A stretch of DNA of 36,727 bases from Candidatus Gastranaerophilales bacterium (GTDB lineage Bacteria > Cyanobacteriota > Vampirovibrionia > Gastranaerophilales > Gastranaerophilaceae), in contig CALUWF010000015.1 in NCBI GenBank assembly GCA_944324405.1, forward strand, positions 1 to 36,727, given 5' to 3'. The notes under the pieces were generated by a model. The model saw only the letters and a program-made list of their open reading frames with translations. It did no database searches and was not told the DNA's origin. Position numbers and translations under genes: made by a program. Shown here in pieces: positions 2,305-24,662 of this stretch. Every line of letters begins with the position of its first letter. Within the stretch, counting starts at the first letter, position 1.

Positions 2305-3705
2305 ATGATTATAAATGCATTTACAAGAGCACGGGGAGCGAACCCAATATATTTTGGAAATAATGGCAAGCTTGACACAAAAGACTCTGCCAATACTTCA
2401 GAGCGGGGAAAGATAGACTGGTCTGCAAAAACAAATGTATACGCTTACCACAGTATAAAAAATATACTTCCTGATAATTTCTACAAAGCAAGGGGAGAAG
2501 ACCTTGAAATATTAAATGATAAAAGCTACCGCGCGCCTTCAAGAAGAGCAAAGTGGTTTAATCCGAAAGACTGCAAGGTATATTACCTCATTAAAAAATC
2601 ACAGGATGACGACGGAAAAATAATATTAAGAGTTTTAGACCAAGACGGAGAATTTATAAAAGAAACAAGAATATTGCCAAAAACTATAGTAATAGCCGAT
2701 AAATTCACAAACGACGCCAAAGTTCCCTCTATTGGCAATTTTACAACAAGACAAATTCCAAATATTTCACATGGTCAGATGGTTTCACGCTTTGCCTTTG
2801 TCACAAACCCTTTTGCAAGATATGTTTTTGTAGATATTGGGCAGGATGAAAACCCCTATCACGCAATGCAAAAAGTTGTCAAGGAAGCAGATGTAAAAAA
2901 TGTCGATATAGTAAATTTTTCATGGGCAGATTTGATACCTGTTGAATTTTATGAAGATTTTAAGGGAAAAAATTCAAGCCAGTTTCCCAAAATCGCATAT
3001 AAGATTATAACCGAAGAATTTGGCGGAGAAGAAGAAGCAAAAGAAATGTTTTGCAATATTGAAGATAATGCAAAAATCATAGAAGATATAAACAACTTGA
3101 CAAAATCCGGAATAAAAGTATTTATATCAGCCGGAAACTCGGGAGAAGGAGAGTTTAACCTTGCCTTGCTTGCAAACGGCGTTCAGGGGGTCGGTGCACT
3201 GAATGAGCAAGGGGGGTTTAGCGAATTTAATTCATCCAGAATAAAGATGCTCACGCCGCACTTTGAACGTGGCGAATACAAAATTAAAAGAACAAAAGAC
3301 GGGATAAATTACACCGGCGGAGATTATACAGACTATTACTGTAATGTGGATAAAATTTTTTATCTGAGCGGACATAAATTACAAAGACATTTAATAAAAA
3401 GTGAAGACTTTAATAAGCTGATAAAATATAAAAAAGACTCTTCAAGCGAATTTAGAAATTATTATGCATATCTTATTGGGAAAAATACGGTTATAAGCGG
3501 AAGGCAGGCTTGCAGACTATTTAATGATGCAAAAAACAGAGCATACGACAATATTGTTGTAAGTCTTGGCGATTGGATACCGTATGAACTTAATTTTCAA
3601 AATGAGCTGGTACCGCATTTTGAAAGAATACGCGGAACTTCATATTCCACGCCGATACGTGCAGCAAGATACGCGCTAAATGAATCAATGAACAATGCAC
3701 TTTAG
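2305..3705 (+). CDS. Divergent subtilisin-like (S8) serine protease
   Basis: A 466-residue protein in which a full S8 catalytic set can be placed in the right order: Asp132 (VIADKF), His156 (SHG), oxyanion Asn278 (FISAGNSG) and Ser446 (RGTSYSTP, the GTSxxTP box). The match outside these boxes is weak. There is no signal peptide, and a 130-residue N-terminal region precedes the catalytic Asp. Asn278 to Ser446 is 168 residues, against 66 in subtilisin BPN', so about 100 extra residues are inserted there (roughly 315-420, rich in Tyr, Lys and charged residues). It might act in the cytosol, or be exported by a non-Sec route. Only a weak AGGT precedes the ATG. A TAAAAT at 2292-2297 would start transcription one base before it. 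Substrate unknown. Confidence 0.8.
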   Translation: MIINAFTRARGANPIYFGNNGKLDTKDSANTSERGKIDWSAKTNVYAYHSIKNILPDNFYKARGEDLEILNDKSYRAPSRRAKWFNPKDCKVYYLIKKSQDDDGKIILRVLDQDGEFIKETRILPKTIVIADKFTNDAKVPSIGNFTTRQIPNISHGQMVSRFAFVTNPFARYVFVDIGQDENPYHAMQKVVKEADVKNVDIVNFSWADLIPVEFYEDFKGKNSSQFPKIAYKIITEEFGGEEEAKEMFCNIEDNAKIIEDINNLTKSGIKVFISAGNSGEGEFNLALLANGVQGVGALNEQGGFSEFNSSRIKMLTPHFERGEYKIKRTKDGINYTGGDYTDYYCNVDKIFYLSGHKLQRHLIKSEDFNKLIKYKKDSSSEFRNYYAYLIGKNTVISGRQACRLFNDAKNRAYDNIVVSLGDWIPYELNFQNELVPHFERIRGTSYSTPIRAARYALNESMNNAL

Positions 3706-6485: not shown

Positions 6486-7496
6486 TTAAAGTGTCATTTG
6501 ATAAAATTCGCCGTCTTTGTTCAGCATGACAATTTTGCTTTCTAAATCGTCATAGAGTGAAAAATCCGTGCCCGTACGAAATTTAATACCCTCATTATAC
6601 GAAACAGGCTCTTGTGCAACAATTCTTGAATTTATAGATGAGTAATCCGACAAAACGCCTGCAAAATTATAAAAAAGTGCGTTTCTTGCCGTATACGAAG
6701 TGCCGGCCGGACTTTTTTGCACACCGCGCATAAATGTAACAGGTAAAAAGCCGTAATCAGACTGAATGTCCTTTTCAAGCGTAATTACATAATCGCAGCT
6801 TTTTGGGTGCAAATAATCTCTTCCGGCGATATTTTTTAAATAAGTAATTTTGATTTTCGGCTCATCAACATCCATACCATAGAGAAAAGAGCTTGTTTTT
6901 GTGTTCATTTTATTTTGCTTGACGATTTTTGTATATCTAAATCTTGAGCCGTCCGAGTCAATATACTCGCTTGTTTTTGGGTAATCCGAAGAATATGATT
7001 TTTCAAATCTTGAAAGTGAACCATCGGGATTAGCAAAAATTAATTCTCTTTTTGAGCTGTCTTTTATTTTCATGCTGCCATCGGGATATATATCGGTTTT
7101 TCTAAACTCTTCGCCATTTTTATACTCCCTCATCATAACGGGTGAGGAATTATTAAAAACAACTTCTCTTTGCAGTACATTTTCATCGTTATAAGAACTT
7201 GAAATCCCGCTTTCTTTTGCATCATTCAGTAAATTTGTCACATCCTCAATAACATGCTCAACATGACGCGTTAATTCAAATGCATGAGCGGAAACTTTTT
7301 CAACCTCATTTTTTGCCTTTATTAAAGAAGCATAGCTATCCCTTATTTTAGCACCGTAATCCAAATCAGATGTAAAAGGAATATCAAAATAAGAAACCTT
7401 GTTTTGCACTGATTGTTTACTGTTTTGCTCTTGTTTAGCGGGAATAAAATTATTGGATTTGTATATATTAAACGAACTTACCGGTGAAATTTTCAT
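6486..7496 (-). CDS. Hypothetical protein with DGS-type strand repeats, 336 residues
   Basis: Not recognised. The ATG at 7496 is chosen because GAGG lies ten bases upstream; the longer reading from a TTG at 7511 would place that ribosome site inside the gene. Parts: an N-terminal Asn/Gln/Ser-rich stretch (about 1-40) without a classical signal peptide; a probable helical segment (about 48-95, Glu/Lys/His-rich); then at least three spaced beta-hairpin-like units with Pro/Ser-Asp-Gly-Ser cores (YPDGS, NPDGS, DSDGS, about 135-190); then a mixed C-terminal domain. The DGS units recall MORN/YD-type strand repeats. It lies 82 bases after thiS. Possibly a lineage-specific surface or exported protein, which is inference only. 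Confidence 0.72.
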   Translation of the reverse strand: MKISPVSSFNIYKSNNFIPAKQEQNSKQSVQNKVSYFDIPFTSDLDYGAKIRDSYASLIKAKNEVEKVSAHAFELTRHVEHVIEDVTNLLNDAKESGISSSYNDENVLQREVVFNNSSPVMMREYKNGEEFRKTDIYPDGSMKIKDSSKRELIFANPDGSLSRFEKSYSSDYPKTSEYIDSDGSRFRYTKIVKQNKMNTKTSSFLYGMDVDEPKIKITYLKNIAGRDYLHPKSCDYVITLEKDIQSDYGFLPVTFMRGVQKSPAGTSYTARNALFYNFAGVLSDYSSINSRIVAQEPVSYNEGIKFRTGTDFSLYDDLESKIVMLNKDGEFYQMTL

Positions 7497-7578
7497 AAAA
7501 TTATACCTCAAACTATATATGCAAATATAATAATACCTGAAAATATAATTTTTTGCTATTCACTACAATAAGTCTGCT

Positions 7579-24179: not shown

Positions 24180-24662
24180 ATGGGCTGGGTCACAATATCA
24201 CTCAGAAAAATGGCATTAAAACAAAGGGTATCTAACATGCAGTACAGGTTGCTGCAAGTTAGCCAAGAAAGACAAACGATTGCAAACCAATCACAATATA
24301 CCCAACGTTATTTAAATGCAATGAAAAACCAGCAATATAGCGGCATCACAAACAGCTATATGTCAGCCGTTCAAGAGCTGCAAAACAATGCGGCAAATAT
24401 GGACCCCACATCAAGTGAATGGAGTGCATATCAAACAAGCCTTGACCAATTAGCTCTTGTACAATCAAGACAACAAATGGCTGTAGACTCGGTATTCCAA
24501 GGTTATGAAGATGCATTAATGGGAGATGTTAACAGACGCGACCAACAACTTGAAGCAGAACAAACACAACTCGAAACACAAATTCAAGCGGCACAAGCAG
24601 AACTCGAAAGCTTAGACGAGGCAATGGAACAAAGTATTCAAGACAGCGCAATTAAATTATAA
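24180..24662 (+). CDS. Gln-rich coiled-coil protein of unknown function, 160 residues
   Basis: Not recognised as a named family. The N-terminus MGWVTISLRKMALKQRV is amphipathic and basic without a cleavable signal. The rest is almost wholly helical by composition, with heptad-like stretches at about 15-50 and 112-152, the latter very rich in Gln and Glu. There are no cysteines. The gene has a strong ribosome site (AAAGGAG, eight bases from the ATG), an untranslated region that could be up to about 200 bases, a palindrome upstream and a strong terminator downstream, so it is a single-gene, probably well expressed and regulated unit. Small helical proteins of this sort serve as secretion-rod, filament or scaffold subunits, but that is inference. 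Confidence 0.75.
   Translation: MGWVTISLRKMALKQRVSNMQYRLLQVSQERQTIANQSQYTQRYLNAMKNQQYSGITNSYMSAVQELQNNAANMDPTSSEWSAYQTSLDQLALVQSRQQMAVDSVFQGYEDALMGDVNRRDQQLEAEQTQLETQIQAAQAELESLDEAMEQSIQDSAIKL

What the first reader, a model, noticed from the sequence alone, without database searches (positions are those of the whole stretch)
2305..3705. Signal-less, highly divergent subtilase with a large insertion inside the catalytic core
The Asp132/His156/Asn278/Ser446 set is in order, but the spacing is far from standard: 168 residues separate the oxyanion Asn from the Ser (66 in subtilisin BPN'), and 24 separate Asp from His (32 in BPN'). A 130-residue N-terminal region replaces the usual signal and propeptide. 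A cytosolic or non-classically exported protease with a built-in regulatory insert would be new. No inhibitor or substrate gene is adjacent.
Basis: partly seen in the sequence, partly recalled or inferred. Interest (0 to 1): 0.6.

Follow-up and report, generated by a model that had tools for sequence, protein, structure and literature searches.

The report
Leaderless lineage-specific subtilase of gut bacteria
The gene encodes a real but very divergent subtilisin-type protease with no export leader, one of a family confined to a group of non-photosynthetic gut relatives of cyanobacteria; it looks active, and how or whether it leaves the cell is the open question.

Summary
Window 2305-3705 (+) encodes a 466-aa protein that is a genuine, highly divergent peptidase S8 domain. 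Pfam scores it just under its cut-off. A profile of 26 relatives aligned to ordinary subtilases puts Asp132, His156, Asn278 and Ser446 on the DSG, HGT, AGN and GTSxxxP positions. Across 31 relatives His, Asn and Ser are invariant and Asp is kept in 28 (Glu in 3); close pairs mostly show dN/dS of 0.08-0.29. So it is probably an active enzyme under selection.

The "insertion in the core" lies in a loop just before the Ser helix: constant length inside the genus (Asn-Ser = 168 in all six orthologs), 81-238 outside it. The short Asp-His spacing (11-25) is family-wide. There is no Sec leader and no I9 propeptide match; a conserved ~85-residue domain runs straight into the Asp strand.

The family is accessory, confined to Gastranaerophilales, sometimes duplicated or broken. 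Structure prediction failed (pLDDT 38-39), so active-site geometry is untested.

In passing: this genome has a second flagellar-type export apparatus, and the protease's tail resembles tails of other leaderless proteins, so non-Sec export is testable but unproven.

The parts
2305..3705 (+). gene for the 466-aa divergent S8-family protease
   Evidence: ORF; Pfam PF00082 19.7 bits against cut-off 21.8; profile-profile alignment with S8
2305..2424 (+). variable N-terminal tail, residues 1-40, no hydrophobic leader
   Evidence: 23% mean identity among genus orthologs, 2 of 40 columns invariant
2350..2364 (+). YFGNN, residues 16-20: the family's [F/I/L/Y]-x-G tail motif (FGKN, FLGKR, FKGKI, FHGIN, FVGKN in relatives)
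   Evidence: alignment of 31 relatives
2425..2679 (+). conserved N-terminal domain, residues 41-125, predicted helix plus beta hairpins, runs directly into the Asp strand
   Evidence: 51% mean identity in the genus; no Pfam domain recognised in that region; strands in a low-confidence model, pLDDT about 50-79 over residues 61-123
2698..2700 (+). Asp132, catalytic Asp
   Evidence: aligned with canonical DSG; Asp in 28 of 31, Glu in 3
2770..2772 (+). His156, catalytic His (HG)
   Evidence: aligned with HGT; 31 of 31
3136..3138 (+). Asn278, oxyanion Asn (SAGN)
   Evidence: aligned with AAGN/SAGN of subtilisins; 31 of 31
3340..3624 (+). long insertion, about residues 346-440, in the loop before the Ser helix; helical in a low-confidence model
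   Evidence: absent or different in length in relatives; constant length and 38% identity in the genus; helices at pLDDT 60-88
3640..3642 (+). Ser446, nucleophile (GTSYSTP)
   Evidence: aligned with GTSMATP/GTSYSTP; 31 of 31

Best explanation
It is a catalytically competent, leaderless, lineage-specific member of peptidase family S8 (clan SB). Shown: the four catalytic positions align with those of ordinary subtilases and are kept under purifying selection in a family spread over the order. Inferred: it cleaves proteins by the usual Asp-His-Ser triad with Asn278 in the oxyanion hole. Inferred: the N-terminal domain is a permanent part of the enzyme, because it ends only about 7-9 residues before the Asp, leaving no room for the usual propeptide junction and first helix of a mature subtilisin; it would replace the I9 chaperone in folding or gating. 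Inferred: the loop before the Ser helix tunes substrate access in each clade. Its patchy presence, duplications and broken copies mark it as an accessory enzyme rather than a housekeeping one. The place where it acts is not settled.
For: Profile-profile alignment in register at all four residues. Profile hits to solved subtilisins, several of them intracellular serine proteases. Pfam S8 matched by 11 of 26 members at E <= 0.01. Invariance of His, Asn and Ser in 31 sequences at 22-52% identity to the query. dN/dS 0.08-0.29 in seven of eight close pairs. Found in 57 of 286 genomes of the order and in 5 of the 6 other genomes of the genus searched. Neighbourhood conserved in L032. Long matches to the family profile, N-domain included, occur almost only in this family of bacteria, with one weaker case in a sister family.
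Against: No structure: both AlphaFold2 runs failed for want of an alignment, so closeness of the triad is unproven. Asp-His spacing of 11-25 is shorter than in BPN' (32). One sub-branch has Asp to Glu, HG to HA/HS in two of its three members and GTSxxxP to GTSxxxS (L021, L026, L027), so catalysis may be lost in part of the family. One close pair (97% identical) has dN/dS 0.8. Some copies carry stop codons (G110, G031, G278).
Confidence: 0.8

Rival explanations
1. Cytosolic protease working like the intracellular subtilisins (ISPs): made without leader, held inactive by its N-terminal region, released under stress or in stationary phase. (A reading of where and how the enzyme of the best explanation works.)
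For: No Sec leader. Best-scoring solved relatives in the profile search include intracellular subtilisins (7xr8, 7y6m, 2xrm). No partner gene needed.
Against: Those hits rest on about 60 residues and do not place it in the ISP subfamily. The ISP inhibitory prosegment is short (general knowledge), whereas this N-terminal domain is about 85 residues and of another type. Patchy, duplicated and decaying distribution fits an accessory rather than a core quality-control role.
Confidence: 0.45
2. Exported without Sec by the order's second flagellar-type (type III) export apparatus, the variable N-terminal tail ending in [F/I]-x-G serving as the signal; the enzyme then acts on proteins outside the cell.
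For: A nearly complete second set of export genes exists in this genome, and FHIPEP proteins are in all 272 genomes of the order searched. The tail motif recurs at the N-terminus of unrelated leaderless proteins and is kept in many distant relatives of the protease. A leaderless nucleotidase family shows a similar conserved start in 30 of 30 relatives. Proteins that start M-x-[IV]-[NSTGQ] are enriched for F-x-G only in residues 6-36 (OR 4.0, p 4e-4).
Against: The pattern was chosen after looking at the data. In a second genome it only trended (OR 2.9, p 0.07), and a stricter form of the pattern showed nothing there. F-x-G alone is not clearly enriched at N-termini. In the nucleotidases the motif abuts the first strand and may belong to the fold. 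No secretion experiment, no chaperone gene next to the protease.
Confidence: 0.25
3. A pseudoprotease: the subtilase fold kept for binding, not for cutting.
For: Extreme divergence, below the Pfam cut-off. A sub-branch with Asp to Glu and loss of the Pro after GTS. Broken copies in some genomes.
Against: His, Asn and Ser unchanged in 31 sequences while the mean column identity is 31%; Asp in 28 of 31.
Confidence: 0.12

Closest known systems
Peptidase family S8 / Pfam PF00082 (subtilases)
   Same: Order and sequence context of Asp, His, oxyanion Asn and Ser
   Different: Below the Pfam cut-off; short Asp-His stretch; extra about 30 residues between His and Asn; long loop before Ser; own N-terminal domain
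Intracellular subtilisins (ISP; e.g. PDB 7xr8, 7y6m, 2xrm)
   Same: No Sec leader; S8 catalytic domain; among the best-scoring PDB relatives of the family profile
   Different: N-terminal region is an 85-residue conserved domain plus a variable tail, not a short inhibitory prosegment; loop insertion; similarity detected over only about 60 residues
Other leaderless S8 families in the same order (L062-L066, about 460-480 aa, EF-hand-like start)
   Same: No hydrophobic leader; Asp and HG contexts alike; same bacterial family
   Different: Different N-terminal region; Ser motif is STSW(S/T)VP; Pfam S8 score above cut-off

Membership tests
Peptidase family S8 (clan SB) | Asp, His, Ser in that order, each in its motif, plus oxyanion Asn | tested here: met
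   hhalign against S8 of the same order puts all four in register; conserved in 31 relatives
Peptidase family S8 (clan SB) | Score over the curated Pfam PF00082 cut-off (a practical criterion, not a definition of the family) | tested here: not met
   19.7 bits, cut-off 21.8; several relatives do pass it (24-27 bits: G134, G041, G137, G063, G064)
Peptidase family S8 (clan SB) | Subtilisin fold with the triad in contact | tested here: inconclusive
   AlphaFold2 pLDDT 38.3 and 39.1 with two-sequence alignments
Classical secreted subtilisin | Sec signal peptide and I9 propeptide | tested here: not met
   no hydrophobic leader in the translation; no I9 match among Pfam hits of 26 members
Intracellular subtilisin (ISP) | Cytosolic location and short N-terminal inhibitory prosegment | tested here: inconclusive
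   leaderless, but the N-terminal region is much longer and of another type; location not testable here
Type III secretion substrate | N-terminal signal that carries a protein through the apparatus | not testable with these tools
   only a tail motif of modest statistical weight

The most novel reading that the evidence does not exclude
The protease is one of a set of leaderless proteins that Gastranaerophilales send out through a dedicated second, flagellum-derived export apparatus present throughout the order, including members with no flagellum. A subtilase would, as far as I know, be a new enzyme class among type III substrates, and the 'flagellar remnant' genes of these gut bacteria would be a working secretion system.
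Probability: 0.25. Interest if true: 0.8.

Novelty: new variant of a known kind. Interest (0 to 1): 0.42.

Why it matters
It is a subtilase family without an NCBIfam model in common but hard-to-culture gut bacteria, and its lack of a leader raises the question of how these cells export proteins. The answer bears on genes that earlier papers read as an incomplete flagellum (PMC3787301 for MEL.A1; PMC4040986 for six of nine genomes): in this genome they are a second set alongside a flagellar one, so they need another role.

Tried and rejected
Structure prediction of the whole protein and of residues 118-466 failed (pLDDT 38.3, 39.1). Viral collections hold no relative. NCBIfam, PADLOC and PHROGs give nothing useful (the Cmr5 hit at E 0.004 covers 50 residues and was judged chance). 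Single-sequence PDB search gave only weak subtilisin hits around E 0.9-1. An unbiased scan of short peptides at N-termini was dominated by Sec leaders and then by N-rich composition, and F-x-G alone is not clearly enriched. A motif first read at the start of the lytic transglycosylase beside FliE was probably an artefact of a wrong start codon: several relatives start at MF(N/S).

Full report
What was claimed and what is there. The ORF at 2305-3705 (+) encodes 466 residues from an ATG, with no alternative start in the 18 upstream codons. Spacings are as stated: Asp-His 24, Asn-Ser 168. The genome is 1.8 Mb and 99.6% complete; a syntenic relative is labelled Candidatus Gastranaerophilales. It holds no other match to the Pfam S8 model.

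Is it a subtilase? On its own sequence it falls just short of the Pfam S8 cut-off (19.7 against 21.8 bits) and finds subtilisins in the PDB only at about E 0.9-1. With relatives the case is firm. The profile of 26 relatives finds intracellular subtilisin 7xr8 at E 7e-5, through the SAGN region with a weak second piece at GTSxxTP. Aligned by hhalign to two sets of S8 proteins of the same order (which share four members), the catalytic part gives E 1e-5 to 3e-5 locally and 5e-7 to 2e-6 globally. In the better set KTIVIADKF lies on xVCIIDSG, ISHG on GGHGT, ISAGN on xSAGN, and RIRGTSYSTP on xxVGTSYSTP. All four residues are therefore in register with canonical ones.

Is it kept? Among 31 relatives, at 22-52% identity to the query in the 26 aligned, His, Asn and Ser never change; Asp is Asp in 28 and Glu in three. 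The three with Glu (L021, L026, L027) also lose the Pro after GTS, and two of them lose the Gly after His, so that branch may be inactive. dN/dS in eight close pairs is 0.08-0.29 except one nearly identical pair at 0.8. A match was found in 57 of 286 genomes of the order, including 5 of the 6 other genomes of the genus searched; some genomes have several copies and some copies carry stop codons. This is the pattern of an accessory gene.

The spacing. Asp-His is 11-25 across the family, so the short stretch is general, not peculiar to this protein. Asn-Ser is 81-238 across the family and exactly 168 in all six genus members. The shortest relatives go from the GTDI stretch to GTS in about 10-15 residues, so the extra 85-95 residues here sit in one loop just before the Ser helix. 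Within the genus that insert is 38% identical against 44-67% for the catalytic regions, and part of it is predicted helical with pLDDT 60-88 in a model that is otherwise unreliable. It is a maintained, clade-specific loop. Calling it a regulatory insert goes beyond the evidence.

The N-terminal region. Residues 1-40 are variable (23% identity). Residues 41-125 are as conserved as the core (51%), no Pfam domain is recognised there, and they occur nowhere else in the 1.76 Mb of this genome that was read. The domain ends about 7-9 residues before Asp132. I infer a permanent N-terminal domain.

Where might it act? Two facts led outside the coordinates. First, this genome has two sets of flagellar-type export genes. 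The flagellar set is on contig C1 with a full-score FlhA (860 bits, cut-off 772). The second set has FliE-, FliF- and FlhA-like proteins and two further genes placed where FliG and FliH would be, on C3; FliN/SctQ-, FliP-, FliQ- and FliR-like proteins on C20; FlhB-like on C1; and a second T3SS-type ATPase on C40. The second FlhA scores below both the FlhA and the SctV cut-offs. FHIPEP proteins are in 272 of 272 genomes of the order, and in many the best hit is at the level of the second copy (about 1e-213 to 1e-222), as if only that one is present. Earlier papers described several gut members as having a flagellar gene subset that could not make a flagellum (PMC3787301, PMC4040986). Second, the protease tail contains YFGNN, and the matching position in many relatives reads FGKN, FLGKR, FKGKI, FHGIN, FVGKN. 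Other leaderless proteins of the genome start alike (MKIGSVSNAATFKGA, MKITNIQTQNFKGA, MINPVRNYSPINFKGS and more), and a leaderless nucleotidase family keeps M...F-x-[GSAQK]-A in 29 of 30 relatives (F in all 30). The statistics are modest: odds ratio 4.0, p 4e-4 for residues 6-36 and nothing further in, with a trend only in a second genome (p 0.07), and the pattern was chosen after seeing the data. I therefore give export by the second apparatus a probability of about 0.25.

Structure. The order of strands and helices around the catalytic residues in the second model is what a subtilase would show, but at that confidence it is no evidence.

Verdict. The protein is a divergent, probably active, leaderless S8 protease of a family confined to this order: a new variant of a known kind. 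The regulatory-insert reading is not supported as stated; cytosolic versus non-Sec export is undecided.

Noticed in passing
L082:17539-19629(-), L083:1386-3490(-) [C3]; L150:10136-14163(+) [C20]; L073:7653-8756(-) [C1]; G000:C40:4488-4700(-): A second, paralogous and apparently nearly complete set of flagellar-type export genes (E, F, putative G and H, N/Q, P, Q, R, FlhB, FlhA, ATPase) besides the flagellar set. FHIPEP proteins are in 272/272 genomes of the order. Earlier papers read such genes as an incomplete flagellum.
   Followed up: partly
L107:6705-8156(-) [C1:386705-388156]: A third FlhA-related protein holding only the C-terminal, cytoplasmic half of the family (profile positions 321-655).
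   Followed up: no
L150:17991-19625(-) and relatives L199-L228: A leaderless 5'-nucleotidase-like protein (starts MKINSQTTAFKGA) near the second export genes; 30 relatives all lack a leader and keep an F-x-x-[A/S] start.
   Followed up: partly
L073:10502-11497(-), L076:3535-4720(+), L077:18936-19427(+), L111:16203-17210(+), L127:16692-17390(-): Unrelated leaderless proteins with the same kind of tail (M-x-[IV]...[F/Y]-x-G); some follow it with a Gly/Ala-rich hydrophobic stretch.
   Followed up: partly
L062, L063, L065, L066 (other genomes of the order): Another leaderless S8 group with an EF-hand-like start and an STSW(S/T)VP Ser motif.
   Followed up: no
window 6486-7511(-): 341-aa orphan protein between purH and surE, with no significant Pfam match; absent from that place in the related contig L032.
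   Followed up: no
window 24180-24662(+): 160-aa Gln-rich coiled-coil-like protein with no significant Pfam match.
   Followed up: no
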